Shown here: positions 1-60,433 of the stretch, in pieces
Layout of the letters: every line of letters starts with the position of its first letter
Numbering within the stretch: the first letter of the stretch is position 1
Assembly: GCA_028711705.1 (NCBI GenBank)
Contig: JAQTRS010000007.1
Location: forward strand, 1 to 60,433
Direction: 5' to 3'
Source: Candidatus Moraniibacteriota bacterium
Lineage (GTDB): Bacteria > Patescibacteriota > Minisyncoccia > Moranbacterales > UBA1568
DNA: 60,433 nt
Position numbers and translations under genes: made by a program
Notes under the pieces: generated by a model
What the model was told of the DNA's origin: nothing
The model's database searches: none
The model's input: the letters and a program-made list of their open reading frames with translations, nothing else

Positions 1-123
1 TTCCCCGTAATCTTTGGCTGCTTCTTTGCAGTCTTGGCATTCCGGCCTTTCGTCCGGCTCTCCCCAAACTTCGTAGCTCATCTTAATCTCCAGTGTCTAA
101 CCCTGCGCTCAACCGGAGCGCGG

Positions 124-315
124 TTATAATACGGTTTCATTGTTCATGGGTTTCCAGGCCGAATGGGTTTTTGGCATTCCGCATTGGTAAAATTTTGCTT
201 TTATGCTGGGCGCGTATTCCCATGTCCTGCCGCACTCCGGGCATTGCCATAAAGTAGCGGTAAATGTCGCGATATATCCGCAGGCGCATTCAATCGTTTT
301 TGTCGTGTCAGTCAT
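124..315 (-). CDS. Small zinc-ribbon-like protein
   Basis: 63 aa ORF with CxC and CPECG motifs. Confidence 0.6.
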   Translation of the reverse strand: MTDTTKTIECACGYIATFTATLWQCPECGRTWEYAPSIKAKFYQCGMPKTHSAWKPMNNETVL

Positions 316-349
316 TGGTTTCCCAAAAATCCAAAAAATTAACAGCTAG

Positions 350-367
350 TGATCCACTGGTGATCCA
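350..367. promoter_or_regulatory. Putative integrase arm-type site, copy 1 (TGATCCACTGGTGATCCA)
   Basis: 18-bp exact direct repeat with 567-584, flanking the tRNA-derived core and next to the integrase; overlaps the perfect inverted repeat TGATCCATT-c-AATGGATCA at 361-379. Confidence 0.6.
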
Positions 368-469
368 TTCAATGGATCAAACCATGCTACTACATGAGTA
401 AGCATAAAATATTTACTCATTATAATTCAAAGTCTTGTGAAATAAAGCATTGATTTTATTGGCTTGGCG

Positions 470-519
470 TGGGATTCATAACCCCAAGGTCGGTGGTTCG
501 ATCCCACCCATCGCCACCA
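470..519 (+). other. Putative attP core: 3' part of a tRNA gene (CAT anticodon to CCA)
   Basis: tgggattCATaaccccaaggtcggtggttcgatcccacccatcgccaCCA; anticodon arm, T-arm, acceptor 3' strand and CCA present, no D-arm or 5' acceptor strand upstream. Confidence 0.8.
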
Positions 520-566
520 AATAAATCAAAGACATATCAACTCTACAAAAACAATACCACGGCTTT

Positions 567-584
567 TGATCCACTGGTGATCCA
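567..584. promoter_or_regulatory. Putative integrase arm-type site, copy 2
   Basis: Exact repeat of 350-367. Confidence 0.6.
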
Positions 585-630
585 CCGATAAATATTGCCG
601 CTGATAAATTTATCATTATAATCCAGCCTT

Positions 631-1593
631 ATGGCAACTTTTACCAAACGCGGCGACTCTTGGTTTGTCCGCATCCGCAGAAAAGGGCACAGCAGCATCT
701 CGCGGTCGTTCAACACCCGTTCCGAGGCCGAACGCTGGGCGTTGACGATTGAATCCGGCATGGGCGTCGGCACCTATGTGGATAACCGGGAAACCCTGAC
801 CACCACGCTGCATGAATGCCTGGAGCGGTATGCCCGCGAAGTCATGCCGCTGAAAAAAGGCGCGGCCAGGGAAGCCTACCGGGTGAAAATGTGGCAGGCG
901 GACAAGCTCGCGGTAAAAGCCATCGGCGCGATCAAGCAAACGGATATGGCGCGGTGGCGTGATAGCAAGCTGGCTTCCGGCTTGAGCGGAACCAGCGTCA
1001 AGCTGGATTTGTCGCTGCTGTCTCATGTGTTTACTATTGCCATAAAAGAATGGGGGTTCCCTTTAACAAATCCGGTGGCCATGATTCGCAAGCCCAAATC
1101 CGGCATGGCCAGAAACAGGCGGTTTGAGTCCGGCGAAGAAGAACGATTATTGAAATCGTGCAGCCCTGAACTCAAAGCGTTTGTGATTCTGGCTCTACAA
1201 ACCGGAATGCGCCGGGGTGAGCTATGTAGTTTGCGCCGATCCTGGATAAAAGGCCGGGTGGCGTATTTGCCTGATACTAAAAACGGCATGCCAAGAGCTG
1301 TGCCGTTATCAACACGGGCGCTAGAAACCATTGCATCCCTGCCTTTGCGCATTGACGGCGTATTGTTCGGGTTGTTGCCGGATGCCTATACCAAAGGTTT
1401 TATGCGGGCCTGCCGGAAGGCGGAAATTGTTGATTTTCACTTGCACGACCTCAGACACGAGGCCACCAGCCGATTTTTCGAGAAAGGGCTTGACGTGATG
1501 CAGGTTAAGGAGATTACCGGCCATAAATCGCTGCAAATGTTGAGTCGCTATACGCATTTAAAAACGGATGACTTGGCGCAATTATTGTGCTAA
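631..1593 (+). CDS. int: Tyrosine recombinase / phage integrase
   Basis: 320 aa; TGMRRGEL, HDLRHEATS, GHKSLQMLSRYTH catalytic motifs. Confidence 0.95.
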   Translation: MATFTKRGDSWFVRIRRKGHSSISRSFNTRSEAERWALTIESGMGVGTYVDNRETLTTTLHECLERYAREVMPLKKGAAREAYRVKMWQADKLAVKAIGAIKQTDMARWRDSKLASGLSGTSVKLDLSLLSHVFTIAIKEWGFPLTNPVAMIRKPKSGMARNRRFESGEEERLLKSCSPELKAFVILALQTGMRRGELCSLRRSWIKGRVAYLPDTKNGMPRAVPLSTRALETIASLPLRIDGVLFGLLPDAYTKGFMRACRKAEIVDFHLHDLRHEATSRFFEKGLDVMQVKEITGHKSLQMLSRYTHLKTDDLAQLLC

Positions 1594-1814
1594 ACCGCCA
1601 GCCGTGGACGACCGCGCTTAGGCCTGTCGGCAATCCGGTCAGGCTCCTTCAAGCTTTCAGACCACGCTTCCAGATCCCGCACCCGCCAGGACTTGCGCCC
1701 GCCCAGGCGCACCGGCGCGGGGAATGTCCCGGCCTTGCACATGCGGTCGATGGTGGCCGGGCTGAGGTCTACGGCTTTCGCGGTATCGTTAATATCCAAG
1801 TGTAAAATTAGCAT
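1590..1814 (-). CDS. AlpA-like / excisionase-type HTH protein
   Basis: 74 aa; DINDTAKAVDLSPATIDRMCKAGTFPAPVRLGGRKSWRVRDLEAW. Confidence 0.8.
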   Translation of the reverse strand: MLILHLDINDTAKAVDLSPATIDRMCKAGTFPAPVRLGGRKSWRVRDLEAWSESLKEPDRIADRPKRGRPRLAV

Positions 1815-1873
1815 ACTAGTATCGAGGCCGTGCCGAACTCGGCCATCAGGCTGAAAAAGGTGGAGGTTTTCAT
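1814..1873 (-). pseudogene. Possible truncated PrtN-like N-terminus (MKTSTFFSLMAEFGTA...)
   Basis: Minus-strand reading gives MKTSTFFSLMAEFGTASILVC*, which resembles the N-terminus of pyocin-activator PrtN-like proteins and then stops. Confidence 0.35.
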
Positions 1874-1902
1874 GGTAATCCCCTCGTCAATAAATTCTTG
1901 AA

Positions 1903-2346
1903 TGGCTCGCTCAAAACTAATGTTTCTGTGTTTGGCTGCATGGCTCGCTCCCCTAGTCTGTTTCTGTTTTTTCCCATTGGCTCGCTAACAATATTTGTTT
2001 CTGATTTTTTTCAATGGCTCGCTACATTCTTATGTATCCGGTTGATTAATTGGCTCGCTAAGCATTATTGTTTCTGTTCGCATCCCTTGGCTCGCTAAGT
2101 TTAGCTGTTTCTGTTTTTTGTTTATGGCTCGCTAACTTTACCTGTTTCTGTTTGGGTTATATGGCTCGCTTGTTTTGAATGTTTCTGTTTTCCTATGATG
2201 GCTCGCTAAAAACGGCTGTTTCTGTTTGGTTTCATTGGCTCGCTAGGCTTTGCTGTTTCTGTTTTATTGACTTGGCACGCTAAATAATGCTGTTTCTGTT
2301 TATGAATTATGGCTCGCTAAGCAACAATGTTTCTGTTTTCTCAAAC
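1903..2346. repeat. Block U of bipartite 37-bp repeat array: 12 units of TGGCTCGCT-N9-TGTTTCTGT-N10
   Basis: R1 starts at 1903, 1941, 1978, 2015, 2051, 2088, 2125, 2162, 2199, 2236, 2273, 2310 (period 37; first interval 38, fourth 36). N9 segments all differ. Confidence 0.95.
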
Positions 2347-2359
2347 CGGCAAAATTCAA

Positions 2360-3247
2360 TCAGGCGGCTTTGCTGTGGACAAGGCCCAGCTTTTCCTCGG
2401 CGTAACGCGAGCGCACCGGCAAGCCTTCAATCGTGCGCCAGGTTGTCCAGCAATCCGCTAAAAACTCCTTGATCATATAGCGGGTCGCCATATTATGAAG
2501 ATGGCCCTTGGTCTTGTCTTGATGCTTCGGATGGTGTTGCAGGCGGTGTTTATAGCCGTCGTAAATGTCCCGGTACGGCCCGCCCAGTTTGATGAAACTC
2601 GCGCCTAACACGCCGACCATTTTGGTTTTCAAAAACGGATTAAAGGTAATGCCCACCGTGTCCACGGCAGCGCCGTCCCGGTTGACATAGGTTTTCGGCG
2701 TCAAGTGGTGTTTCTTACGGCAGCGGCCTTCTTCCAACGTGTCACCGTCAGCGTTTTCCGAGACCACGACATCGAGGCCCGCGTATTTCCACAGGGCGCT
2801 GATGGAATTGCATTTGTGAATATCGATTTCCGCAATCATCACCGCCGCCATCATCGGCCCCACGCCTCTTACGCCTTTCAGCCAGTCGTAAATCGGGTAG
2901 TTGTCCAGCTCGATTTCCAGCAGCCGGATATGGGATTTTTCCGAGTCGATTAGCTGCTCGTAGGATTTAATCAGCAGCACTTCGCCGCTCGAAGTCAGCA
3001 ACTGCGAGTCCGGCTTGAAGTGTTTGGTGACGCGCTTGACGCCGTCGGTGATCAGTTTATACTCGCCGCGCAACTGTTCCAGCACGGCGGCGGCTTTCTC
3101 GTTCTTCTCGCTGTCCTCGGCCTCCCCCGGCGCGATGCCCAGCTTGTCCCGAAAGGCCGCGACAATGCGGTTGCCGGACTGAATGCGTAGTTTTTGCAAT
3201 TGGTACAACGAATGCACCGATACTCTGAGCAAGGATTCGGTTTTCAT
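2360..3247 (-). CDS. IS110-family-like protein: C-terminal Tnp_20/HhH region without recognisable N-terminal DEDD domain
   Basis: 295 aa; LKGVRGVGPMMAAVMIAEIDIHKCNSISALWKYAGLDV and C-terminal GPYRDIYDGYKHRL...KGHLHNMATRYMIKEFLADCWTTWR. Confidence 0.8.
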   Translation of the reverse strand: MKTESLLRVSVHSLYQLQKLRIQSGNRIVAAFRDKLGIAPGEAEDSEKNEKAAAVLEQLRGEYKLITDGVKRVTKHFKPDSQLLTSSGEVLLIKSYEQLIDSEKSHIRLLEIELDNYPIYDWLKGVRGVGPMMAAVMIAEIDIHKCNSISALWKYAGLDVVVSENADGDTLEEGRCRKKHHLTPKTYVNRDGAAVDTVGITFNPFLKTKMVGVLGASFIKLGGPYRDIYDGYKHRLQHHPKHQDKTKGHLHNMATRYMIKEFLADCWTTWRTIEGLPVRSRYAEEKLGLVHSKAA

Positions 3248-3249
3248 AA

Positions 3250-3444
3250 GGTCTCGCTAATTAATTAAGGTTGTGGGTTGGGTTGAATGGCTCGCTGTCC
3301 GGGTGTGTTTCCGGTTGGCAATCCTGGCTCGCTCGTCATGCCTGTTTCTGTTTCCCTTGCCTGGCTCGCTGGATATTATTGTTTCTGTTCAAAGTCCCTG
3401 GCTCGCTAAATCAATATGTTTCCGGTTGGACGAATTGGCGCGGT
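3250..3444. repeat. Block V of the same 37-bp array: 4 clear units plus degenerate units at both edges
   Basis: R1 at 3288, 3325, 3362, 3399; degenerate R1 at 3250 (ggtctcgct) and 3436 (tggcgcggt); R2 TGTTTCTGT or TGTTTCCGG at fixed offset 18. Confidence 0.92.
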
Positions 3445-3446
3445 TT

Positions 3447-3929
3447 TCATTTGATCACCAAGGCCCAGCCGTTTTCGATATGCGCGCCGGGCACGTCGCC
3501 GGCGACCTTGATCGCCAGTTTGTTGATAAATTTGCTTTCCCGGATTTCGGTGAACGCGTCGGGTATCAAGGCCTCATCATCGATAATGACGCGGCCCGAG
3601 GTTTTACGCAGACTCACCTCGAATTCGGGGCAGCTTATTTTTGAGATGGCGCAGGCCAACATGTTTTCCTTTAAGTAGTCTTTTAGTCTTTCTGACTTGT
3701 TTTTTATCGCTTCCCTGCGTTTTCTCATTTTTTCCTCAGCCTCCTTAATCATGCGTTCTTCTGCATCGAGGTTTTGGAAATACCGGGCAATATTTTTCGC
3801 CTTCATTTCAATGTCACCTGACAAAGACTCCAAGGTATCACTAAGTGCTTGCGGATCAATATCTTCCATTTCGGATAATTCCAAAAATGCACGTTGGTAT
3901 TGGGCTGCCAATTCATATAAATTATTCAT
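3447..3929 (-). CDS. Siphovirus Gp157-like protein
   Basis: 160 aa; MNNLYELAAQYQ...KIKRLKDYL-type coiled coil then ISCPEFEVSLRKTSGRVIIDDEALIPDAF. Confidence 0.85.
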   Translation of the reverse strand: MNNLYELAAQYQRAFLELSEMEDIDPQALSDTLESLSGDIEMKAKNIARYFQNLDAEERMIKEAEEKMRKRREAIKNKSERLKDYLKENMLACAISKISCPEFEVSLRKTSGRVIIDDEALIPDAFTEIRESKFINKLAIKVAGDVPGAHIENGWALVIK

Positions 3930-4152
3930 CTGAAAAAACCTTTTCTTTGTAAGCTGCTGATAAGCTTTTCTGGATTTGAATCAACGGTTTCCCGCAGTAG
4001 CAACAAAATCGCATGCCATTGGCTTCAGGAGTAGCTTCGACGAGACAAAATGAATCGCCGCAAGCCGTGTTGTACACGTCAGCATTTTCCCAGTCGTCCT
4101 CCTGACGCCAGCAGCAGCAGCCGCCGCCTAAGTCGTTGTCTTCACCGCTCAT
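3922..4152 (-). CDS. Small Cys-rich protein
   Basis: 76 aa ORF overlapping its neighbours by a few bases; CCYCGKPL zinc-ribbon-like. Confidence 0.6.
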   Translation of the reverse strand: MSGEDNDLGGGCCCWRQEDDWENADVYNTACGDSFCLVEATPEANGMRFCCYCGKPLIQIQKSLSAAYKEKVFSDE

Positions 4153-4796
4153 GCGGGCTCCCCGAGGAGTTGCGCCTTCCTAGTGTTCTTTGTTTCTAAA
4201 CAAAGCGGCTGCAAGGCCTTTGGAATAGTGCGCCAAACTTCGGCCAGTTGCGCGATGTGGGTCACGGCCTCGAGCTTGCCGCGCCAGTCGGCGATGAGTT
4301 TGGCCGCCTGCGCCTGTTTTTCATCGGCGCTGGGCTCTTGCGCTTCCGGCTCAACATGCAGCTCGCCCTTGTGCCACAAATCCAGGGCCGCGCCAAAGCG
4401 CATGGCGGCATTGCGCAAGGCGTCGCCAATGCGCTCTTTCATCGCGTCGCCGCCGGTTTTGCCTTGGGCGTCGCCATAGCCTAAGCGAGTCACGCCGCAC
4501 ACCGTCAGCTTTATCCACATGCCGCCGTTGCCATCGATCACCGGATAACCCTTGTCATCCAGCGCCAAGGGCTCCCAAGTCCAGGCCGGATCGCAGTCCA
4601 GCAGCCTGTCTGTCAGGGCCGCATGGCCGACATAGGATAAGTGCACGGCAGGCAGGCCGTGATAGCCGCCACATTCCTTGCAATTGCCTTTTTGCGAGTC
4701 CTTTTTGTAGGGCTTGGGCAGCTTGGAAATCTGGTTGTCTGGAAACGGCTTGCGCAATAATGCCAAGCCGGTTAGTTGTTCGCTCATCACAGCCAC
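4149..4796 (-). CDS. Putative single-strand annealing protein, Rad52/Sak-like
   Basis: 215 aa; YVGHAALTDRLLDCDPAWTWEP...TRLGYGDA...MKERIGDALRNAAMRFGAALDLW. Confidence 0.65.
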   Translation of the reverse strand: MAVMSEQLTGLALLRKPFPDNQISKLPKPYKKDSQKGNCKECGGYHGLPAVHLSYVGHAALTDRLLDCDPAWTWEPLALDDKGYPVIDGNGGMWIKLTVCGVTRLGYGDAQGKTGGDAMKERIGDALRNAAMRFGAALDLWHKGELHVEPEAQEPSADEKQAQAAKLIADWRGKLEAVTHIAQLAEVWRTIPKALQPLCLETKNTRKAQLLGEPA

Positions 4797-4878
4797 TCCA
4801 AAAATACCGCCAGTAAAATAACCGGCGTCAGGATCACCAGGACGCCGTAGAAAAACATCAGTCTGAGTTCGCGGTTCA

Positions 4879-5088
4879 TCAGAACACCCCTTCCTCAGCC
4901 CACGCCTCGACGGCCTGCGCCCGTGCGCTTAACTGCTCCGAGCGTTCGTACTCTGCGGCATAGCCCAAGTCGTAAGCGATGCCCTGGGGCGTGTGCGGCA
5001 GGCCCCGCGCCGCGTCAAGACGGCCCCTGATATGGTCGTTTTTATAGCGCAACGCTTCTATCTGCATCTGTAGATATAAGTCGCTCAT
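4879..5088 (-). CDS. Hypothetical protein
   Basis: 69 aa ORF, 4-bp overlap with upstream gene. Confidence 0.6.
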   Translation of the reverse strand: MSDLYLQMQIEALRYKNDHIRGRLDAARGLPHTPQGIAYDLGYAAEYERSEQLSARAQAVEAWAEEGVF

Positions 5089-5354
5089 GCCGTCTCTCCC
5101 GGCGCGTTCAAGGCCAGCAGCTCCTGTTTGCGCTGGGCCAGTTGCTGAATCTCGACCATGGCCTGCTCCTGAATGGCCGCGATTTGCCGGTCCAGCACGG
5201 CCACCTCTTGCGTGATGACGGCGTCCTCCGGCAACGGCGGAAACTCAATGTCGACAAATTCCGTTAAGCGGACATAGTCGCGGTGCTCCGCGCACCAGTC
5301 GTCAGTAATGACTTCGTAATCCACGCGGATATTTTTATACTTGGCCAGTCTCAT
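5085..5354 (-). CDS. Hypothetical protein (start at MRLAKYKNIRVDYEV)
   Basis: C-terminal 89 aa of ORF 5085..5528; internal ATG fits the operon better. Confidence 0.55.
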   Translation of the reverse strand: MRLAKYKNIRVDYEVITDDWCAEHRDYVRLTEFVDIEFPPLPEDAVITQEVAVLDRQIAAIQEQAMVEIQQLAQRKQELLALNAPGETA

Positions 5355-5497
5355 TTCACACCTACCTGATAGGCCATAAAAAACCGATTCCGGCGCTTGT
5401 TGCGCCAGCATTGGGCGCGCGCCAGGCAGGTCTCCCGGCCCACCACCAGCGCCCGGCCGTCCACGAATTGTAAAAGTTGGTAATGCTTTTTGTTCAT
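5351..5497 (-). CDS. Small hypothetical protein (MNKKHYQLLQFVDGRALVVGRETCLARAQCWRNKRRNRFFMAYQVGVK)
   Basis: 48-aa ORF read on the minus strand, overlaps the next start by 4 bp. Confidence 0.55.
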   Translation of the reverse strand: MNKKHYQLLQFVDGRALVVGRETCLARAQCWRNKRRNRFFMAYQVGVK

Positions 5498-5682
5498 TTT
5501 CGTCCCCTTCTGTCTCGATTAAAGTCATATTCTTGTTGCGCCGCGTCCATCGCCTTATTCAGCGCGTCGGTGGCGTCGGTAATATGCCTGAAGCACAGCG
5601 AGCGCCCGCCCCCCGCGCGCCGCCGTAAGTCTTGCAGGCGCATTTTTGAGGCATACAGGTCATCCAGCAACGCTTTATCCAT
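5494..5682 (-). CDS. Hypothetical protein
   Basis: 62 aa ORF in the same tight operon. Confidence 0.55.
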   Translation of the reverse strand: MDKALLDDLYASKMRLQDLRRRAGGGRSLCFRHITDATDALNKAMDAAQQEYDFNRDRRGRK

Positions 5683-5962
5683 CCGTTCCTTCGCCGGTGG
5701 TTAAAATTAAGGTTCCCGCCTCGCACGGGATCGGCGGTTCAGTGAAGCTACGGTCTCCGCGACGCGAGAAGCACTACCGCTAAGATTCGGTTATTCCAGC
5801 GCCGCCGACAGCACCAGGTCGGCGAACTCCTCCAGCTTGACTTCGTTGTCGCGAAGCTGGAGGTAAGCCCGGCGCTGGGGCGTGATGTCGGCAATCTCGA
5901 TGTCGTCAACGTGTTCTACTAGCATGATTAGTCTCGGTTTAGGTGGATGTTTGGTCTAATAT

Positions 5963-5998
5963 AAACAAAAAGTTTGCACTTGTCAAACAATATGTTTG
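5963..5998. promoter_or_regulatory. Putative OL: AAACAAAAAGTTT (5963-5975) and CAAACAATATGTTTG (5984-5998)
   Basis: Palindromic AAACN5GTTT sites 22 bp apart; same motif found in the cI-cro intergenic region. Confidence 0.7.
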
Positions 5999-6016
5999 TT
6001 TATTTTTCAGCAGGCA

Positions 6017-6042
6017 TAAAAAAACCCGCGTTAGCGGGCTTG
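6017..6042 (-). terminator. Rho-independent terminator for the leftward repressor operon
   Basis: Minus strand: AAGCCCGCTAACGCGGGTTTTTTTATG. Confidence 0.75.
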
Positions 6043-6066
6043 ATGGGGTGAATTTTTTGGGGTGTT

Positions 6067-6282
6067 TTAGTCGTTTAGCTCTAACCGGCGCTCAATGTGA
6101 TCCAGGCGCTGTTCAACCAGCGCCTGCGCCTGCGCCTCGGTAAAACCGGCGTCGGTTAGTTTTTTAAACTGTTTCCACGTATCAAAAGGGAAAAAGGTCA
6201 TGGGAAAAACGCCTTCAACACGAGCGCCAGCATCCCGGCCATGAGCGACAACATACCCGCGACCAGGAAACCCAACAGCCAT
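6067..6282 (-). CDS. Small coiled-coil protein (…DHIERRLELND)
   Basis: ORF; real start probably the internal MTFFPFDTWKQFKKL. Confidence 0.55.
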   Translation of the reverse strand: MAVGFPGRGYVVAHGRDAGARVEGVFPMTFFPFDTWKQFKKLTDAGFTEAQAQALVEQRLDHIERRLELND

Positions 6283-6494
6283 TTGAAGGTCGTTGCGTCG
6301 GCTTTCAACACCGCGATATCGGTTTTTAAGGGCGCCAGCGCGAGATCCATATCCGGTTTGGTCGCCAGTTCCCTTAAGTTGACCGCCAGCGCTTCCGCCA
6401 GCGCATTAGCCTGGGCTTCCGCCTGGACAGCAGGCACGCCGCCCTCTTTTAAGGTATTGGAATATTTCAAGGTATCAAAAGTAAGGGTGCTCAT
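6198..6494 (-). CDS. DUF1640-like coiled-coil protein with C-terminal TM
   Basis: MSTLTFDTLKYSNTLKEGGVPAVQAEAQANALAEAL...; paralogous to 55346..55606. Confidence 0.75.
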   Translation of the reverse strand: MSTLTFDTLKYSNTLKEGGVPAVQAEAQANALAEALAVNLRELATKPDMDLALAPLKTDIAVLKADATTFKWLLGFLVAGMLSLMAGMLALVLKAFFP

Positions 6495-6497
6495 GGC

Positions 6498-6770
6498 TTA
6501 GTCTTTTATAAAATTGAGAAACGTCACGGTTACGCCGTTGTCGGCGATGATTACCGTATCAAACGGCAGGTAGAACTGATCAAACGGCAGGTAGACCTGC
6601 ATGTAAATTGAGGCCTTCCCGATTTGCAGACGCAGACTGGCCGGTTTGATTCTCGATCCGCGACGCTGTGCATGACGCTTCTCGGTTTCGGGTGTAACTC
6701 TGACTTCTCGACGCTCTTTTATACGCTTTTCAAAATATTCACTATAGAAATTATTATCGCCCGACATCAC
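6498..6770 (-). CDS. Hypothetical protein
   Basis: 90 aa ORF downstream of the cI-like gene. Confidence 0.5.
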   Translation of the reverse strand: MMSGDNNFYSEYFEKRIKERREVRVTPETEKRHAQRRGSRIKPASLRLQIGKASIYMQVYLPFDQFYLPFDTVIIADNGVTVTFLNFIKD

Positions 6771-7341
6771 GTTTAATCCTGTCAGCTTTCAGCGATTGTT
6801 CAGCATCCACTAGCCAGGCGTCTTTACGCAATAAAAAAATAATTCTTTCCGGCGCCGGCAGCACCAGGGTCTTTTTAAAAATGTCAGCGGCTTTTTTACC
6901 AGACAGGTTGTAAAGCGCTATCCTGCTCGCTTCATCGTCCGCGTACAGCCCTTCCTTGATTAATTTATCGCAACCATCGCCAAGCTTTTTCAAGTAGTCC
7001 TCCATGTCAGCCTTGGATTTTTCCCGCAGGATTACCATCAGCTCACCCATCTGAATTGTAGAATCAACGGGCCGGTCGGATTGGTCGGCTTGGGGCGCGT
7101 TATTGCCCCCCGGAGGCGGTTGTGTTGACGGGTATTTCGGTTGCGCTCCTGAATCCAGCCATTCCGGCATCACGCCTAATTCCTTGGCTAGAGGGATTAT
7201 TTTTTTTGCCGGAACACCTCGAGACCTCCAGTTTGTCCAGTCCTGGCTTCGTATGTTTATTTGCCTTTGGAAGTCCGCATATTTGATCTTTTTTTCTGCT
7301 AAAACTTCACAAAGTCTGTCAAATGCCGATTGCTCTCTCAT
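6754..7341 (-). CDS. CI-like phage repressor
   Basis: MREQSAFDRLCEVLAEKKIKYADFQRQINIRSQDWTNWRSRGVPAKKIIPLAKELGVMPEWL; divergent from the Cro-like gene. The longer ORF start (7428) would overlap the operators. Confidence 0.8.
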   Translation of the reverse strand: MREQSAFDRLCEVLAEKKIKYADFQRQINIRSQDWTNWRSRGVPAKKIIPLAKELGVMPEWLDSGAQPKYPSTQPPPGGNNAPQADQSDRPVDSTIQMGELMVILREKSKADMEDYLKKLGDGCDKLIKEGLYADDEASRIALYNLSGKKAADIFKKTLVLPAPERIIFLLRKDAWLVDAEQSLKADRIKRDVGR

Positions 7342-7414
7342 AAACAAAAAGTTTATATCAGAAAGATCAGGATTTAAACAAACATATTGTTTGCTTTTTA
7401 CAAACGATTCGTGT
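7342..7414. promoter_or_regulatory. Putative OR: sites at 7342-7354, 7379-7393 and a weaker one at 7402-7414
   Basis: AAACAAAAAGTTT; CAAACATATTGTTTG; AAACGATTCGTGT. The last two are 22 bp apart, as at OL. Confidence 0.7.
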
Positions 7415-7426
7415 ATTGTTGAATTC

Positions 7427-7627
7427 ATGACAAATATGCAACCTGCAATTGATTATTTCGGAACCCAAGCCGCCCTTGCCAAGGCCATCGGCGTTAACCC
7501 TATGTCGGTAACGCAATGGAAGCGGCGCGGGCTGCCCCCTAGGCGTGCCAAAGAAATTTCAGAGTTAACTCACGGCACCATAAAAGCTTCTGATCTGTTG
7601 CCTAACTTCTTTCATAGCCAACAATGA
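7427..7627 (+). CDS. Cro / YdaS-like regulator
   Basis: MTNMQPAIDYFGTQAALAKAIGVNPMSVTQWKRRGLPPRRAKEISELTHGTIKASDL. Confidence 0.85.
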   Translation: MTNMQPAIDYFGTQAALAKAIGVNPMSVTQWKRRGLPPRRAKEISELTHGTIKASDLLPNFFHSQQ

Positions 7628-7662
7628 CCCCTTTTCATATCTCCTCCTTGAGATACCCCCTC

Positions 7663-7691
7663 GCCGGTTTCTCCTGTCCGGCTTTTTTTAT
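7663..7691 (+). terminator. Rho-independent terminator after the cro-like gene
   Basis: GCCGG-N10-CCGGC followed by TTTTTTTATT. Confidence 0.65.
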
Positions 7692-7738
7692 TCGATTATA
7701 TCGCCGGGTTTACGCTCCGGCTATGGGCTTGATCAATA

Positions 7739-8050
7739 GTGTGTAAGCGCGTCGCCGCCACTTTGCTTAATCCGCTGACCTTGACGCCGCGGGAAGCCGA
7801 TGTGCTGCGCCTGTTGTGCGTCGGTTATGGCGATAAAGCCATCGCCCACGCCCTGGCTATCAGCGTTTGCACCGTGCAAAAGCACCTGCAGGCCATTTAC
7901 AAAAAACTCGAGGTCGATCAATACCAGGGCAACACCCGCGGGCTGACCTCCAGTCTGGCGATTGCGGGCGGCATGGTGCAAGTCCAGGTTGGCGGCGGCG
8001 ACCGAAGGCACGGGCGCGGCGGCGAGCGGCGGCTGAGGGCGGCAAGGTGA
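7739..8050 (+). CDS. LuxR/GerE-type HTH regulator
   Basis: LTPREADVLRLLCVGYGDKAIAHALAISVCTVQKHLQAIYKKLEV. Confidence 0.8.
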   Translation: MCKRVAATLLNPLTLTPREADVLRLLCVGYGDKAIAHALAISVCTVQKHLQAIYKKLEVDQYQGNTRGLTSSLAIAGGMVQVQVGGGDRRHGRGGERRLRAAR

Positions 8051-30800: not shown

Positions 30801-31592
30801 ATGGTTATCCAGGTTGAAGTGACGACGGTGTGTAATTTTGAGTGCGGGTATTGCACGATCCGCCATTACCCGCACAAGATGTTGTCCATGGCGGCCTTCA
30901 AAGCGCTGGTTGAGCCGCATTTAAGGTCCGCACAGGTTACCGAATTCCGGTTAAACGGCACCGGCGAGCCGCTGCTGCATCCTGAATTCTGGGACATGGC
31001 GCGGCACATCAAGGCGCGCTCGCCGCGGGCGGCAGTGACGACTATTTCCAATGGCTCGGTCATGACGAAACGGCATCAGGACGCTATTATCCGGTATTTA
31101 AGCTGGCTTTTTATTTCCATCGATACTACCGATGTGGCGCAGGCCGGGCAAATGGGCAGGCACGGCATCGATAAAGTCATACTCCATCTTCGTGAATTAG
31201 TCGCCAGAGGCTATCGGGCCATTACCCTGCTGGCAGTCGATTACGGACAGGATTACACGGACGTTCGGCAACTGGCGGAGGACTTGGGCATTCAGTTTGC
31301 CAGTAAACCGTTACAGCCGAAAAACGATTATCGGGAAGTTTATGACGATCGCCGGTTAACGCCTCAATTAGCGCCTGTCCCGGACCTGATTAATACCGTG
31401 ACGTGTCCGTTTATACAGCGCGACATCCTGCGTTTTTACACCATTGACGGCGTCGAAATGCCCTGTTGTTTTATCAGAGACACCACGGACTATGCCGGAC
31501 GGGACGCGTTAAAGACGGACATGGAGCAAGGCGTCATTCCCGGCTCATGCCGGGGCTGTGGTTTTTTAAGTTTCAATCAGCCGGGGCGCTGA
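30801..31592 (+). CDS. Radical SAM protein with SPASM-like C-terminal cysteines
   Basis: TTVCNFECGYC (CxxxCxxC); EFRLNGTGEPLLHPEFW; C-terminal CPFIQ...MPCCF...CRGCGF. Confidence 0.9.
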   Translation: MVIQVEVTTVCNFECGYCTIRHYPHKMLSMAAFKALVEPHLRSAQVTEFRLNGTGEPLLHPEFWDMARHIKARSPRAAVTTISNGSVMTKRHQDAIIRYLSWLFISIDTTDVAQAGQMGRHGIDKVILHLRELVARGYRAITLLAVDYGQDYTDVRQLAEDLGIQFASKPLQPKNDYREVYDDRRLTPQLAPVPDLINTVTCPFIQRDILRFYTIDGVEMPCCFIRDTTDYAGRDALKTDMEQGVIPGSCRGCGFLSFNQPGR

Positions 31593-31593
31593 C

Positions 31594-32865
31594 GTGATCC
31601 CCCGGCACCGCATTCTGTTTGACGGCGATACGGAAGCGTGCACGCGCTGGCTGCCGTTCGCCCTGAATTTGCTGGTTCAGGCCGCGCAGCAGAAGCTGCC
31701 GGTGCTGAAACGGCAGATGAACGAGTCCGACTGGCTCAGGGTGCAGTGGAATCCCAAAGGCATCAGCACGGTGTACATCAGCGCGGGCGCGGCCAGTTTG
31801 TTTGTCTGCGGCTTGAATAACTGGGGGCAGTTGGGCGTCGGCCATGAAGTGCCGGTAGCATGGGAGCCGTATATATTTCTGATCGGCGGCCTTTATATTC
31901 TGCTGTTGCCGATTCCTGCGCGGGTGAAAAAAAGCATGACGCAGATAGCCGCCGGGAAAGAACACAGTCTGGCGTTAACAGCCAACGGCGATTTGTACGC
32001 CTTCGGGCGCAACCAGCAAGGACAATTGGGACTAGGCGACACAACGTTACGGGATATTCCTGTGAAAGTTGGCGCGGGTTTTACCGCGATAGCGGCAGGC
32101 GATAGTCACAGTTTGGCGTTAAAAGGCGAGGATTTGTACGCCTTTGGCGCGTATCATTGGGCTAACGTGAGTTATGAAGTCATTTCGCACACGCCGTTAT
32201 TGATCGGCGCGGGCTTTCACAAGATAGCGGCGGGCGGCGGTCACGGCTTGGCGCTTAAAGCCGGCGGCGATCTGTACAGTTTCGGCGGCAATGGGGCCGG
32301 GCAACTAGGCTTGGGCGATGCCGTCAATCAATTCACGCCGACCTTCGTGGGGGCTGAGTATAAGGCGATAGCGGCTGGCTTTGCGCACAGTCTGGCGATT
32401 AAGGCCAACGGCGATCTGTACGCCTTCGGCAGTAATACCGACGGGCAACTGGGCCTTGGCGTGTTCGGCTATGTCGATGTAGATTATTCTTACCGCCTCG
32501 AACCGACACTGATTGGTGAAGATTTTAGCGCGGTTTCCGCCGGCAGCGCCTTCAGTCTGGCCTTGAAAACCAACGGCGATCTGTATGCCTTTGGCGGCGG
32601 GCAATTGGGGCAGTTGGGCTTAACCGATACCGACGGACGCGCTTCGCCTACGCTGGTTGCAGGCGGCTTTAAAAGCATTTCGGCGGGCGCATCGCACACC
32701 TTGGCAATCAAAAGCAACGGCGATTTGTACAGCTTCGGCAGCAATATCAACGGTGCGTTGGGGTTGGGCGATTACGACAACCGCGCCAGTCCCGTTAAAG
32801 TCGCCGTCAACGTCAGCGCCGTGGCAGGCGGCGGCGAATTCAGTCTGCTCTTGAAATCAGGATAG
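31594..32865 (+). CDS. RCC1-repeat beta-propeller protein
   Basis: Repeats of ISAGxxHSLALKxNGDLYAFGxNxxGQLGLGD. Confidence 0.93.
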   Translation: MIPRHRILFDGDTEACTRWLPFALNLLVQAAQQKLPVLKRQMNESDWLRVQWNPKGISTVYISAGAASLFVCGLNNWGQLGVGHEVPVAWEPYIFLIGGLYILLLPIPARVKKSMTQIAAGKEHSLALTANGDLYAFGRNQQGQLGLGDTTLRDIPVKVGAGFTAIAAGDSHSLALKGEDLYAFGAYHWANVSYEVISHTPLLIGAGFHKIAAGGGHGLALKAGGDLYSFGGNGAGQLGLGDAVNQFTPTFVGAEYKAIAAGFAHSLAIKANGDLYAFGSNTDGQLGLGVFGYVDVDYSYRLEPTLIGEDFSAVSAGSAFSLALKTNGDLYAFGGGQLGQLGLTDTDGRASPTLVAGGFKSISAGASHTLAIKSNGDLYSFGSNINGALGLGDYDNRASPVKVAVNVSAVAGGGEFSLLLKSG

Positions 32866-32868
32866 GTT

Positions 32869-35238
32869 ATGAGTAACTCTCTCGAAAAAACATTCCTGAC
32901 AGAATACACGCTGATCCCCGGCTACACCATCCGGCGCTGGCATCCGGCGGAAACCGTCACCACCACCCGCTATGTCACGACCACCAGCGCCGATCCGACG
33001 CCCCGACTGATTCCCGAAGGCGCGGATTTTAGCTATAGCCTGGGCGATACGGTGCTGACCGGCTACTGGAAGCCCAATGTCAATCCGTTGTTGCCGGATG
33101 AGTTTGTTTATTACCGCAGCGATCACGCCACCCTGGTCTATGGCCTGCGCACCGTCACCGAGGCGATTACCGAAACCCATACGATTCCGGGTTATTATAC
33201 CTATGACATCCAGCCGGACACCTATGCGCTAAGCTACAACCCGAACCTGGGCTGGAATGCCTCCGGGCGCTCGCTGGATGTCATCAACGGCGATGGAACC
33301 GCGTCTTTTTCGGTGCCGGTCAGTTCGGTGGGCGTGGTGGTCGGCCTCAATGAGCCTGGCGACAGTTCCGGCAGCGATTATTTTGAAATCACTTACGGCG
33401 TCTATTGCACGCGCGGCATTTATCGGGTGCTGGAAGCGGGCGCGGTCAAGTATGGCGGCCTGGCCTATAGCGAAGGCGACGTGTTCAGCATCACCCGCAC
33501 CGACGGCGAAGTGGTGTACGCGCTCAACGCTACGCCGTTTTACACCTCGCTGACCGAATCGACCGCGCCCTTATTGCTGGACGCCTCTCTGTACGCGGGC
33601 GGCGATGTCATCCTGGATGCGTCGTTAGTCGCCAGCGCCGCCAATCTGCACGCGCAAACCAACTTTGTCGGCGTCATTGCGGCGATCAGTTCCGGCGATA
33701 CCTTCACCTTCACCTATGACGGCGATCCTTACACCGCCACGATGGGTTCCATTGCCGGGGGACTGCTGGCGGCGATTCAGGCGGCGATTGATGCGCAGGT
33801 GGGCGCGGGACTGGTGCTTGCCAGTATCTCCGCCTCCGGTTTAAGCCTGATTCTGACGGCGGCGACGGCGGGCATACCCCTGGTCGGCGGGGTGTTTACC
33901 GATGTCGATAATGGCAGCGCCGAAACCGCCGCCATCGACGGCGATTTAACGGAACTGGTCGGCGCGTTTGGCCCCCTGTCCGCGCTGCTGACCAGCGGCT
34001 TTAGCGATTACGCGGCCATTAACGGCGGTTTCGCGCCGATGACCGCCCAATTGCGCGAGAGCGAACTGAGCAACAGCTACGCGGCCATTGCCGGGGCCTT
34101 CAGCCCGATGACGGCGGAAGCCCGCTGTCTGGTGGGCACGACGACGCTGAATACCGTGCAGGCGTTCGCGCCGATGATAGCGATTCTGGCCGATCACGCC
34201 CATCACGAAATCAACGGCAGTTTCCGTTCGATGGTCGCGGCATTAGGCTCCATTCCTCCGATTGTGGGCCTGAATGTTTACGGCGGCGCGTTCGCCACTA
34301 CCTTGACGGCGGAGCTTAGCGCGGCTGAAAACCTGCGCGTATCCGGCGGCGCGTTTCATACCTCGCTGTCGGCCCACTTCGGCGCAAACATCGCAGGCGG
34401 CGCGTTCCACACGGCGCTGACTGCCACGATCAGCGGCGCGCCGTCATTGTTTATTTCCGGCGGCAGTTTTACCTCCGCGCTCACGGCGACGATTACTAAC
34501 GCCGCCAAGGTCACGGTCGCGGGCGGCGCGTTCAGCACGGCCCTGGACTCCCACTTCGGCTGGCGGATAGCGGGCGGCGGCTTTGCCTCGTCACTGACGG
34601 CTACGCTTACCGGCTGGGCGTCGATGGCGGTGTCCGGCGGCGCGTTTCATACCGCTGTCGATATCGGCATTACCGGCTATCACCCGATGCACATAGCAGG
34701 CGGGGCGTTCCACTCGCAGTTATTGTGGATGGAGATAGCCGGGGGCGGTTTTCACACCGGCTTGCAGGCGACTATTTCAACGACGCTCGCCAACGCCGTG
34801 GCCTATGTGCTCAACATCCACAGCACCGAATCCACCCGGTACAGCAATTATCCGTTCCTGCACATCATCGCGATCGGCTCAAAATACTACGGCGTCACCG
34901 GTACCGGCCTGTACGAAATAAACGCAACGATAGCAACGGATGCCTTGCCGGTTGCAGGCACGGCCATTAACGGCAAGGTGACGCTGAAAGACACCGATTT
35001 CGGGGATTTTCACAGTAAGCATGTGCCTTATGTCTATCTGAATTCGGATACCGCCACGCGCGTGACGCCGATTGTCGATGGCGCGCGCAAAGGGACGTAC
35101 GCCAGTTCGTTTTCCGGAAAAAAGACCAAGCTCGGGAAGGGCAATTCGGGGCGCTATTGGACGTTCGAGATTGAGCATATTATCGAACTGCAAGGCGCGG
35201 AATTCTTGCCGGAATCCCGGCAACGGCGGGTTAAGTGA
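32869..35238 (+). CDS. Repeat-containing tail fibre/spike-like protein
   Basis: 789 aa; about nine copies of (I/V)xGGAFHTxLxAxI. Confidence 0.75.
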   Translation: MSNSLEKTFLTEYTLIPGYTIRRWHPAETVTTTRYVTTTSADPTPRLIPEGADFSYSLGDTVLTGYWKPNVNPLLPDEFVYYRSDHATLVYGLRTVTEAITETHTIPGYYTYDIQPDTYALSYNPNLGWNASGRSLDVINGDGTASFSVPVSSVGVVVGLNEPGDSSGSDYFEITYGVYCTRGIYRVLEAGAVKYGGLAYSEGDVFSITRTDGEVVYALNATPFYTSLTESTAPLLLDASLYAGGDVILDASLVASAANLHAQTNFVGVIAAISSGDTFTFTYDGDPYTATMGSIAGGLLAAIQAAIDAQVGAGLVLASISASGLSLILTAATAGIPLVGGVFTDVDNGSAETAAIDGDLTELVGAFGPLSALLTSGFSDYAAINGGFAPMTAQLRESELSNSYAAIAGAFSPMTAEARCLVGTTTLNTVQAFAPMIAILADHAHHEINGSFRSMVAALGSIPPIVGLNVYGGAFATTLTAELSAAENLRVSGGAFHTSLSAHFGANIAGGAFHTALTATISGAPSLFISGGSFTSALTATITNAAKVTVAGGAFSTALDSHFGWRIAGGGFASSLTATLTGWASMAVSGGAFHTAVDIGITGYHPMHIAGGAFHSQLLWMEIAGGGFHTGLQATISTTLANAVAYVLNIHSTESTRYSNYPFLHIIAIGSKYYGVTGTGLYEINATIATDALPVAGTAINGKVTLKDTDFGDFHSKHVPYVYLNSDTATRVTPIVDGARKGTYASSFSGKKTKLGKGNSGRYWTFEIEHIIELQGAEFLPESRQRRVK

Positions 35239-35575
35239 GCGCCAATAAACGCTTCAGGTTAGCGGTGAAGGCCGCTTGGTCAGCCGTCCCGAGCCTGCCC
35301 CAACGGGCCAGAATCAAGCGCTGATCCAGGGTAAACAGTTTCAGGCGGATAACCGAAGCCGCCGGTAGTCCGGCGTCCGTCCACGCGACGATCGGCGTAT
35401 CCAGCGGCCATTGGGAATGGTGCGCGGTGGTAATCATCGCCATCACGCTTTGACCGATGGCGTCATTAAACGCCGAGCCGTCGGACAACACTAAAGCCGG
35501 TCGTGTTTTGGCCGCCGGCCGGTCGGTAAACGGAAACGGCACTTTGACAATCTCAAAGCGCTCATAGGTTTCCAT
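35231..35575 (-). CDS. MazF/PemK-like toxin
   Basis: METYERFEIVKVPFPFTDRPAAKTRPALVLSDGSAFN...VIRLKLFTLDQRLI. Confidence 0.85.
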   Translation of the reverse strand: METYERFEIVKVPFPFTDRPAAKTRPALVLSDGSAFNDAIGQSVMAMITTAHHSQWPLDTPIVAWTDAGLPAASVIRLKLFTLDQRLILARWGRLGTADQAAFTANLKRLLALT

Positions 35576-35798
35576 AAGCCGCCTCGTCTTCCGGGCTATC
35601 CCATTCGGACAGCGTACGGCTGACGGCGGCAAGATACTCCAGATCTAAAGGCTCGAGACGGCGCACCCACAGCCGGCCATCGGCGTCCGTTTGCCACAGC
35701 AAGGTATCGCCGGTTTCCAGATGTAGGCTCTTACGGACGGCGGCGGGGATGGTGACCTGGCCTTTGCCGGTGATTTTAGCGGTGGCTGACATGGGCAA
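35562..35798 (-). CDS. AbrB/MazE-like antitoxin
   Basis: MSATAKITGKGQVTIPAAVRKSLHLETGDTLLW. Confidence 0.88.
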   Translation of the reverse strand: MPMSATAKITGKGQVTIPAAVRKSLHLETGDTLLWQTDADGRLWVRRLEPLDLEYLAAVSRTLSEWDSPEDEAAYGNL

Positions 35799-39576: not shown

Positions 39577-42500
39577 ATGGCCGATAACTTTGCCGAACTG
39601 GACAACTACAGCGCCGATCCTTTTGGCGAACTGGACAGCTACGCGCCGCCCAAGCCATCCGGCACGCTGGGCGCTTACGGGCAAATGCTCAAGCAGGGCG
39701 TCAAAGGCATTCCGGCGTATGTCAATGCCGCCATTGAAGGCGACCGGCCATACACGACGCTGGATCGCGCCGATGAACAGATCGCTCAAAATGCGCTGGG
39801 CCAACGGGCCTTTATCGAGGGGCCGAACGCCGATGCGCCGGTTTTAGGCGGGCTGGCTAAAGAGCGGGACATCCGGCAGGGCGCAGACAGTGCGTCAGGC
39901 ACCCTGGCGACTTTAGCCCCGGCCTTGGCGGGCAGCGCCTATGGTTCGCTGTTCGGGCCGGTCGGCACGGTGGTGGGCGGCTTGGCCGGGGCTGGATTAG
40001 GACTTTACGGCATGAAGCGTTATGATGAAAACCGCTTCATCCGCGAGAATGTCGAGAAAGCCAATGCCGACCGAGCCGCCGCGGGTCAACCGGAGCTCAG
40101 CCAGCCGGAAGCGGTAGCTTTACAGGATAAACTGGTGGCGACCGGCGACCCGCAAGCGCGCGGCTTATGGGAAGCCGGTAGTGAAACCCTGGGCACGGCG
40201 GCGGAACTGGCGATTGCCCTAAGCCCCTTGAAGGCGGCAAAGTTGTTGAAGCCGATAGCATCCCCCCTGGCACGGGCGGCGCTGGTGGGAACCGGCAAAG
40301 CACTAGGGATAGCCGGAACCGAAGTGGGCGAGGAAGAAGTCACCCGGCGCGGGCAAAATCCTATTCAGGCCAAGTACGGCTTGCCGGAAGCCACAGCCGG
40401 GGAAACCGCCAAGCAAACGCTGATTCAAATGTTGCCGCTGGCAGGCGCGGGCGGCGCGGTCGGCAGTTATCAAGGCTATAAATATCAGCCGCCATCAGGC
40501 CCCTTAACCAACGCCGCCGCTGCCGCCGGCGTCAACACCCAACCCGAAGTTATCAATGAACCGCAACCAACCAGCCCTGATGAGGGACAAGATGGACTTT
40601 TACAGGGCGCAGGTAGACCTCTACCGGAGGCAACTGGAGGCGCAGATACTGATCTTCAAGGCGCAGGCGAAATACAAAACGCCGCTGCCGGACAACCCGG
40701 CGTCGGGCCTGTCTTTCCGCCATTGGCAAACGGCGCAGACCCAAACGCAGTTGATTCTGAACCGGCTACAGGAACAGGCGAAACCGTAGCCGGTTCGACA
40801 GACTCACGGCCAGTACCGGATAGCCGCGCCATAAAATTAGGCCAGGACACTTACGCCGCCGATGACTTCATTACCGAGCAAATGGACAGCGGCCTTAGCC
40901 ACGCTGACGCTGTCCGGCTTTTTGATGACCTTTTTAATGCCCAAAACAATAACAATAATGCCCGAACCGAAGCCCCATTACCTGGCCCTGGAACAGCTCG
41001 TCCTGGCGCAAGCGGACGCCCTGAGCCGGATGCACGAACAACTGCAACAGCTAGTGAAGCGGATACAACAACTGGAGCAACGCCTCCCGGAGACCTGAAT
41101 GTTCAACCACAAACTGAAACAGCTACTGGAACTGCAACAGGCGCAACTGAATCAGCACAAAGAAATGATTCTGATGTTGCTGAACCTGCTGCAAACCCTG
41201 CCGCAGCGGATGCAACCAGCGAGCGCGCCGGATTACGAACTGCCGGAACCGGACTTGCTGACGATGGCGCTGGACTGGCAGAGCCGCCACCCGGAGCAGG
41301 ACATCCTGCTGCCGCAGGCGGCGTTCAACCGGCATTAACGCCGTTTACGCCCACCCATGAACTCAGCGACGGCACGAAAGTGGTCGCCGTTGACGATGCC
41401 GGGGATACCTGGCGCGATAAGGACGGCGGCGAATGGCGGGAGTCCGATGTCCGGCCATTAACGCCGCCGCCAGCCGCTAAGCCGGTCAAAACCCAGGATG
41501 CGGAAAAACCTGTGTCTACGGCGGCGCAGACTGAACCGCCCGCGCAAGCTACACCGCAATCGCCGCTTGAAAATACGTTAAAAAGAAAGGTGCTGAGCCG
41601 TCAATTTAACAATCGCTATCCACACGACAAAGAATTTGCTAAAAAAATAGTTGATTCAAAACTGTCTGGAAATATCCATTTAGATGATATTGGCAATCAA
41701 GTCGAATTGAACCAAGGAAAACACATACAGTACATCAACAACGAAAAGGAATCAGGCGTTATCGTAACCAGAACCAATGCCGGCGAGGTATTGGTGAAAT
41801 GGGATTCCGATGAATCGGCAAAACATAACCATGCGGACGCAATATTATCAAAACGAGGAGAAGTAATTGGCTATAAACCCTCATGGGTGCTTAAAGCGGA
41901 GCTTAATCAGTATTACTTTACCAATAAAAAAACACCCCCCGCGCTAACCGAAGCCCAAGCCGTCAAGCAGGCGCGTAAGGAAGCCGGGCAGAAAGCCAAA
42001 GCCGCCGGAGCGCCGTTAGGCTCGACCGCGATGGCGAAGGCTATGAATGACGCGGAAGCTAAGGTCAAGGCGGAGCATGGGCTGGCGCAAGCAGCCGAGA
42101 CGGCCCAGCCGCCGTCAGCGCCGGATAAAAGCGCCGTTTATCACTATACCGTAGGCGAGTTGGGCATGACCTCCAGCAGTGCTATGACCCGCGATAAATC
42201 CAGATGGATAACCTTCGATCATGACTATGTAAGCCGTCTGTCAGGTCTGGCTGATAATCGTCCTTATGGCGCGACTAAAGCCGGACTCTACACCAACGCT
42301 GAGACGGGCGTCAGCTTTAAAGCCAACGAAACCCCTACCACTAAACTAGCACCCGATGAGCAAACGCACCCAGCGCCAAAAACAGAAAACCCGGCGCAAA
42401 CGGCAGGAACGCAAGCAGGCGTAGCGCCGGCATTCGTCAAAGTCACCGATACCCACGGCACTAGCCATAGCGTGCTGAAGTCCGAACTGGATTCAGGCCG

Positions 42501-54456: not shown

Positions 54457-54545
54457 TGCCGCCGTGGCTGACTGTTTATCTGGCCTTGGCGCCGGTGCTG
54501 GGGCTGCTCGTGATGCTGCTGGTGATCTGGGAGAACGGGGGCTAG
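54453..54545 (+). CDS. Small membrane protein
   Basis: MMPPWLTVYLALAPVLGLLVMLLVIWENGG. Confidence 0.5.
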   Translation: MMPPWLTVYLALAPVLGLLVMLLVIWENGG

Positions 54546-54976
54546 TCCGGCAAAAAGCCGTCATCGATAATCTGCTCGAAGCTCCAGGGACAATCATCCG
54601 GGAAAACATCCAGGCCTGTTTCGGTAATGGCTAGGGTAAGCGTATCCGCCCAGACGCCTTCCAGCCATTCCGGATCAGTCAGTTTTGGTTTTAAACTGGG
54701 GACTCGTTTTAAATGTATCTTTATCGCTTTGCGTTGGGTTCGAATAGTGTTTTGCCAACTACTTCCCTTCCTGTCCGGTTGGTATTGATACTTAAGTAGA
54801 TGCGCCATAAGTACCGCCATCCTGCTTGCTAATTCACGTTGCTCGCTTTTCCCCACGTCGTCAATCTCGTCAGCCAGATGTTCAATATCAAGCAGTTCAA
54901 ACCGGCGCTCGCGCAAAAACCTGGCTTGGTCTATTGACCAGGCAAGCACATCGCTGTCATAACTGGAATTGGTCAA
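54542..54976 (-). CDS. DUF29-family protein
   Basis: DVLAWSIDQARFLRERRFELLDIEHLADEIDDVGKSEQRELASRMAVLMAHLLKYQYQP. Confidence 0.88.
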   Translation of the reverse strand: MTNSSYDSDVLAWSIDQARFLRERRFELLDIEHLADEIDDVGKSEQRELASRMAVLMAHLLKYQYQPDRKGSSWQNTIRTQRKAIKIHLKRVPSLKPKLTDPEWLEGVWADTLTLAITETGLDVFPDDCPWSFEQIIDDGFLPD

Positions 54977-55919: not shown

Positions 55920-56564
55920 CTAAAACAAAAAGCCTCGGCTTTGCATAAAGTCAACCGGATGCTTTGCCTGCTTTTGGAGATTACATGTTTTTCTTAATAG
56001 CTGGATATTTGAATCTTCATTGCTACCGCCCAAAGCCAGCGGCATTATGTGATCCATGTGGAAATCTTTGCCCAGAGGTTGACGGCAGCAAGGACATTTA
56101 CCGCGCTGTAGCTGGTAAAGTTTTTCAGGCAAGCCTTTGGATAAAGTGCCACCGGATTGCTGTTTTAGAGCGCGGCGTTTATGCCAGGCTCTCTTACATG
56201 CTTCTTTGTGGGCCTCTTTGTTGGATTGCTGCCACGCCTTGCCATAAGTCGATATCTGTTGTCCGTGGGCTTCGCGGTACTCCTTTTTGCGCGCTAATAT
56301 TTCTTCTTTATTGGACGATCTCCAAGCCTTTTGTCGCGCAGCTATCTTATCTTTATTGACGGCTCGATAGGCCTTCTTTTGCTCCGCTTTTCTCATTTTG
56401 TTGGCGGCGTCATAAGCCGCTATTTCCGCTTTATGGGCAGCTCGGTAGGCTTTGTGGTACGCAGACCTGTCTTCTGTTGTCATGGGACACCCTTTATCAG
56501 TAGGTTTATCGAAGGAATGTGGCAACAGGTGATAAGCCCGCTTTCGGATGCGCATCCTAGCCAC
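55920..56564 (-). CDS. HNH endonuclease
   Basis: RGKCPCCRQPLGKDFHMDHIMPLALGGSNEDSNIQLLRKTCNLQK. Confidence 0.92.
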   Translation of the reverse strand: MARMRIRKRAYHLLPHSFDKPTDKGCPMTTEDRSAYHKAYRAAHKAEIAAYDAANKMRKAEQKKAYRAVNKDKIAARQKAWRSSNKEEILARKKEYREAHGQQISTYGKAWQQSNKEAHKEACKRAWHKRRALKQQSGGTLSKGLPEKLYQLQRGKCPCCRQPLGKDFHMDHIMPLALGGSNEDSNIQLLRKTCNLQKQAKHPVDFMQSRGFLF

Positions 56565-60412: not shown

Positions 60413-60433
60413 TTCCCCGTAATCTTTGGCTGC

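What the first reader, a model, noticed from the sequence alone, without database searches (positions are those of the whole stretch)
2360..3247. IS110-like protein without a DEDD catalytic domain, embedded in a phage early operon
The C-terminal half carries the IS110 Tnp_20/HhH signature (GVRGVGPMMAAVMIAEIDIHKCNSISALWKYAGLDV). The protein starts directly in the linker-like helical region (SLYQLQKLRIQSGNRI), and no RuvC-like DEDD module is upstream; the array lies immediately before the ATG. It is a single-copy gene in line with the Gp157/Sak-like early operon and shows no obvious IS ends. That suggests a domesticated, possibly RNA- or DNA-guided binding protein rather than a transposon.
Basis: partly seen in the sequence, partly recalled or inferred. 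Interest (0 to 1): 0.75.

Follow-up and report, generated by a model that had tools for sequence, protein, structure and literature searches.

The report
Phage RNA-guided DNA-binding system (TIGR-TasA)
The gene is not a broken transposase but the protein half of a TIGR-Tas system, a recently described CRISPR-like RNA-guided DNA-binding system of bacterial viruses; its guide array lies on both sides of the gene, and what it targets is still unknown.

Summary
The ORF (2360-3247, minus strand, 295 aa) is real and complete, and has no DEDD/RuvC or HNH domain. It is a TasA, the nuclease-less effector of the TIGR-Tas family (Faure et al. 2025, PMC12045711). It passes NCBIfam's TIGR-Tas model (148 bits, cut-off 100) and fails the IS110 model (24 bits, cut-off 140). 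A family profile finds TasR (4e-26) and TasH (2.5e-19) in the PDB, with IS621 only at 0.22. The AlphaFold model matches TasH/TasR complexes first. The neighbouring array is a TIGR dual-repeat array on both sides of the gene: edge AGCGAGCCA, 9-nt spacer A, loop AACAGAAACA, 9-nt spacer B. It has 15 complete units of about 37 bp; 16 motif matches were found where 0.02 are expected. Relatives in 55 viral contigs mostly carry the same layout, always on the tas strand. One departure: this loop repeat ends in ACA, whereas relatives' loops keep AG...CCA. Target searches (own phage, related loci, IMG/VR) gave nothing above mismatched-pair controls. The window is a circular temperate phage genome, probably mis-binned into a small MAG. 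New member of a known kind; function unresolved.

The parts
2360..3247 (-). tasA-like gene, 295 aa solo Nop-domain protein (NCBIfam NF052498 TIGR_Tas; PHROG 4285 'transposase'), no nuclease domain
3250..3442 (-). Upstream TIGR array: truncated first edge repeat (CGCGCCA, 3442-3436), 4 complete 37-bp units, then a degenerate unit whose last edge remnant (AGCGAGACC, 3258-3250) lies at the ribosome-binding position of tas
   Evidence: sequence
1903..2346 (-). Downstream TIGR array: one 5'-incomplete unit, then 11 complete units between the edge repeats at 2318 and 1911 (one unit 36 bp, one 38 bp, the rest 37 bp)
1590..1814 (-). HTH_17/AlpA-like excisionase-type protein, the next gene downstream of the array on the same strand
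631..1593 (+). Tyrosine integrase, convergent with the array operon
488..519 (+). Candidate attP: 3' end of a tRNA (CAT anticodon region just upstream) next to the integrase
   Evidence: sequence; no full tRNA in the window
3447..3929 (-). Sipho_Gp157 protein, the gene immediately upstream of the array in the same direction
5958..5986 (-). Predicted sigma-70-like promoter (TTGACA-17-TATATT) of the leftward operon; consensus match only

Best explanation
This is a TIGR-Tas system of the TasA (nuclease-less) type in a temperate tailed phage. Inferred working: the leftward early operon is transcribed through Gp157, the first array, tas and the second array. Host enzymes, with Tas present, cut the transcript within edge repeats into ~37-nt tigRNAs. 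A Tas dimer binds one tigRNA through its edge and loop repeats. Spacer A then pairs with one strand of a target DNA and spacer B with the other strand of the adjacent 9 bp; the DNA is opened and sharply bent but not cut. The most likely use is to block transcription or replication at chosen sites of competing mobile elements or of the host. Shown here: the protein family, the absence of a nuclease domain, the array, its layout, shared strand and position. Taken from published relatives: processing, dual-strand pairing and DNA bending. Inferred without a test: the biological role (about 0.5 for a roadblock against other elements or host loci). The confidence below is for the TIGR-TasA identification, not for the role.
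For: NCBIfam TIGR_Tas 148 bits over the full profile against IS110 24 bits. Profile search of the PDB: TasR 4.1e-26, TasH 2.5e-19, IS621 0.22, ISCro4 0.41. Foldseek: the top 11 hits are all TasH/TasR ribonucleoprotein structures (E 8e-9 to 4e-6); IS621 follows at 0.036. Dual-repeat array: 16 matches where 0.02 are expected, with 9-nt variable spacers in both positions. Relatives: 46 array chains with 588 units in 36 of 55 viral contigs, all on the tas strand, and six further loci with arrays by a looser detector. Published TIGR definition and mechanism: PMC12045711.
Against: No expression, processing or binding data for this locus. The loop repeat does not keep the box pair (AG...CCA) seen in this array's own edge repeat and in most relatives' loops (514/587 start AG, 527/587 end CCN), whereas the published systems almost always covary these boxes. 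No target of its 16 spacer pairs was found in what was searched. No strong terminator follows the array.
Confidence: 0.93

Rival explanations
1. A domesticated or truncated IS110-family transposase that lost its DEDD domain and acquired an unrelated repeat array.
For: Pfam Transposase_20 match just above its cut-off; PHROG 4285 and 2199 are labelled transposase.
Against: Fails the IS110 model by a wide margin while passing the Tas model; nearer to TasR/TasH than IS621 in sequence and fold; relatives start at about the same residue and nearly all have stop-to-stop frames of about 250-390 aa; arrays co-occur in most relatives.
Confidence: 0.03
2. Same TasA system, but its job is to help phage integration or excision: RNA-guided bending of attachment-site DNA beside the integrase.
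For: The array ends next to an AlpA/excisionase-like gene, a tyrosine integrase and an attP-like tRNA end. PMC12045711 proposes this role in its discussion.
Against: No spacer pair matches the attP region or any other site of the own genome better than 3 mismatches, not above mismatched pairs. Neighbouring genes including the integrase are not conserved beside tas in relatives.
Confidence: 0.1
3. Same TasA system acting on the phage's own genes as a programmable repressor (lysis-lysogeny or early-late switch).
For: Position in the early operon, downstream of a CI/HTH-like gene.
Against: Own-genome matches of the 16 spacer pairs are no better than mismatched pairs (2 versus mean 3.0 at 3 mismatches or fewer).
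Confidence: 0.08
4. A decaying, non-functional TIGR locus: the aberrant loop repeat and degenerate units mean the array no longer makes usable guides.
For: Loop boxes differ from the edge boxes and from nearly all relatives; the units next to tas are degenerate.
Against: The loop is itself well conserved over 16 units (most exact, three with a shared CCGG variant), spacers keep 9 nt, and the tas frame is intact and shares the family's 26 invariant columns.
Confidence: 0.1

Closest known systems
TIGR-TasA (solo Nop-domain Tas, e.g. Flavonifractor plautii FpTIGR; Faure et al. 2025, PMC12045711)
   Same: Solo Nop-type protein; dual-repeat array upstream and downstream of the gene on the same strand; two 9-nt spacers per unit; truncated or degenerate edge repeats at array ends; phage location.
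   Different: 37-bp rather than 36-bp unit; 10-nt loop repeat ending ACA while the edge repeat ends CCA, so the box motifs of edge and loop do not match each other.
TIGR-TasR (PDB 9mty) and TIGR-TasH (PDB 21kl, 9w02-9w04, 9vzx)
   Same: Nop-domain core by sequence profile and predicted fold.
   Different: They carry N-terminal RuvC or HNH nuclease domains; this protein has none.
IS110-family RNA-guided transposases (IS621, PDB 8wt6-8wt9; ISCro4, 9t56)
   Same: Distantly shared Nop-like/Transposase_20 RNA-binding core; weak fold match.
   Different: No DEDD domain, not recognised by the IS110 model, guide array instead of a single bridge RNA.
PHROG 4285 ('transposase')
   Same: Full-length match (139 bits), so this phage family already contains such proteins.
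   Different: The label is misleading: members like this one are Tas proteins.

Membership tests
TIGR-Tas | Nop-domain Tas protein recognised by the curated family model | tested here: met
   NF052498 148 bits, cut-off 100, profile 1-215/215; PDB TasR/TasH best by profile and fold
TIGR-Tas | Adjacent array of two alternating 8-12-nt repeats separated by ~9-nt spacers | tested here: met
   edge 9 / spacer 9 / loop 10 / spacer 9, 15 complete units; 16 motif matches, 0.02 expected
TIGR-Tas | Box C/D motifs that covary between edge and loop repeats (usual, 'almost always', not an absolute criterion in PMC12045711) | tested here: inconclusive
   edge AG...CCA; loop AACAGAAACA or AACCGGAAACA, so the plain reading does not match, but the box boundaries in this loop cannot be fixed from sequence alone
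TIGR-Tas | Array processed into 36-nt tigRNAs bound by Tas | not testable with these tools
   no RNA data
TIGR-Tas | Tandem-spacer, two-strand DNA targeting | not testable with these tools
   no natural target found; mechanism published for TasR and TasH
TIGR-Tas, subtype TasA | No RuvC or HNH domain | tested here: met
   no nuclease-domain family hit; model has no beta strand before residue 160
IS110 transposase | N-terminal DEDD (RuvC-like) domain | tested here: not met
IS110 transposase | Passes the IS110 family model | tested here: not met
   NF033542 24.1 bits, cut-off 140
IS110 transposase | Catalytic serine in the C-terminal Tnp domain | tested here: inconclusive
   the profile alignment with IS621 stops about where the serine motif begins (motif position from memory); in the nearby conserved G-R-S of relatives this protein has Cys176
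IS110 transposase | Element ends and a single bridge RNA | not tested
   gene is bounded on both sides by array units; Rfam gave nothing in 1-8000

The most novel reading that the evidence does not exclude
The mismatch between edge and loop repeats is real biology: a TIGR subtype whose symmetric Tas dimer reads two different box C/D motifs, giving an oriented (asymmetric) guide complex, used by a temperate phage as a cutting-free roadblock early in infection.
Probability: 0.12. Interest if true: 0.6.

Novelty: new member of a known kind. Interest (0 to 1): 0.42.

Why it matters
TIGR-Tas has been described only since 2025, its natural targets are unknown, and the role of the nuclease-less TasA form is the least understood. 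This locus places a TasA with two arrays in a complete circular temperate phage genome. The relatives gathered here give more than 580 guide units for target searches. It also shows that 'transposase' labels in phage databases (PHROG 4285) hide RNA-guided systems.

Tried and rejected
Natural targets: spacer pairs were searched as A + 0-2 nt + reverse complement of B, the geometry I derived from the published 8-nt 3' overhangs and C-5 rule. Searched were the own phage and 55 related loci, against shifted A/B pairings and the opposite geometry; nothing exceeded the controls. Three IMG/VR pattern scans, one of them with a guide of this window, gave 3, 0 and 1 hits. One pair shared by the arrays of L008 and L010 (TGTAGTTTG/GCATTACAA) gave 24 contigs, 13-14 of them at one site of a phrog_13704 virion protein gene. 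An unrelated array (L004/L005) has a 1-mismatch match in the same gene. I do not claim it: the gene family is very abundant (600+ loci), and over 0.94 Mb of that family with flanks the real pairs (10 of 515 at 1 mismatch or fewer) are not clearly above the controls (4-8). Host: the window belongs to a small MAG, but that genome has 40 tRNAs and none with the phage's tRNA-end sequence, and GC differs (0.56 versus 0.49-0.50 for the larger stretches checked), so I rejected it as the likely host. Rfam and PADLOC: no matches. Gene-neighbour conservation: essentially none in relatives. A tree with IS110 outgroups was not built.

Full report
Observation. The ORF at 2360-3247 (minus) encodes 295 aa. 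Pfam sees only a short Transposase_20 match at residues 123-167. Relatives in viral contigs align over the whole length, at 39-52% identity to the window protein, and begin at about the same residue. The AlphaFold model is helical with no strand before residue 160. There is therefore no DEDD or RuvC domain and no truncation. The gene is single copy.

The array. On the minus strand the sequence around the gene reads edge AGCGAGCCA, 9 nt, loop AACAGAAACA, 9 nt, repeated every 37 bp. Four complete units lie between the Gp157 gene and tas, and eleven complete units (plus one partial) between tas and an excisionase-like gene. Sixteen matches to the dual motif were found where 0.02 are expected. The last remnant of an edge repeat sits at the ribosome-binding position of tas; something similar is visible in some relatives (sequence; inference).

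Identity. This is the layout of TIGR-Tas systems: alternating 8-12-nt repeats, 9-nt spacers, array up- and/or downstream of a Nop-domain gene, solo Nop protein = TasA (PMC12045711). Membership was tested. NCBIfam TIGR_Tas gives 148 bits (cut-off 100) against IS110 24 bits (cut-off 140). A profile of the window protein and 27 relatives finds TasR at 4.1e-26 and TasH at 2.5e-19 in the PDB, IS621 only at 0.22. Foldseek ranks eleven TasH/TasR chains first, then IS621. NCBI's model name says endonuclease, but no nuclease domain is present here.

Relatives. 36 of 55 viral-contig loci have clear arrays, 588 units in 46 chains, every one on the tas strand. A looser half-unit detector adds six loci, with chains of 9 or more on the tas strand and at most 3 on the other strand or in shuffles. 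Nine bacterial metagenome-assembled contigs carry relatives, eight with arrays. Arrays of close relatives share some spacers in order and differ in others, so spacer content turns over. Neighbouring genes are not shared, so tas and array appear to move as a unit (inference).

A departure. Relatives' loop repeats start AG in 514 of 587 units and end CCN in 527. The window's loops end ACA and start AAC, though its edge repeats are AG...CCA, and no other fetched locus has this loop. In the published systems the two repeats almost always covary because a symmetric dimer reads them. Either this is a variant reading mode, or the box boundaries are set differently (a 7-nt loop AGAAACA with a longer first spacer), or the array is decaying. 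These were not separated.

Context. The window is a whole circular contig (21-bp terminal overlap) of a tailed phage with a large terminase related to that of epsilon15, a major head protein and portal, a tyrosine integrase and a tRNA 3' end as candidate attP. It is filed in a 1.16-Mb MAG that lacks a matching tRNA and differs in GC, so the true host is unknown. The leftward operon has a predicted promoter at 5986-5958.

Function. By analogy with TasR and TasH, the complex should open and bend a target of two adjacent 9-bp halves, one strand each; without a nuclease it should act by occupancy. No target was found in the own phage or related loci, nor clearly by four pattern scans. One cluster of exact hits in an abundant virion-protein gene is recorded as a lead but is not above controls in a wider test.

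Verdict. A genuine TIGR-TasA system in a temperate phage. It is a new member of a known kind, with an odd loop repeat worth an experiment.

Noticed in passing
window 1-21 and 60413-60433: The contig ends share 21 identical bases, so the window is a complete circular phage genome; it is probably mis-binned in its MAG (no matching tRNA, different GC).
   Followed up: partly
L008:4316, L010:1235; L071 889-2307 (-) and homologues: A tigRNA shared by two related arrays matches exactly, with a 1-nt gap, one site of a very abundant phrog_13704 virion protein gene in 13-14 contigs; a guide of an unrelated array (L004/L005) matches the same gene with 1 mismatch. Not above controls in a wider test, but worth a same-sample test.
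   Followed up: partly
about 1800-1875, minus strand: A 21-aa frame (MKTSTFFSLMAEFGTASILVC) just after the array resembles, from memory, the start of PrtN-type pyocin activators; no Pfam hit, possibly a remnant.
   Followed up: partly
30801-31592 and 31594-32865, plus strand: A radical SAM enzyme followed by an RCC1-repeat protein inside the phage's late gene block.
   Followed up: partly
39577-54456, plus strand: A single 4959-aa open reading frame making up about a quarter of the phage genome.
   Followed up: no
35231-35632 (-), 54542-54976 (-), 55920-56564 (-): PemK/MazF-like, DUF29 and HNH proteins on the opposite strand to the late genes.
   Followed up: partly
PHROG 4285: This phage family, labelled transposase, matches the Tas protein over its full length and is probably largely Tas.
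   Followed up: no
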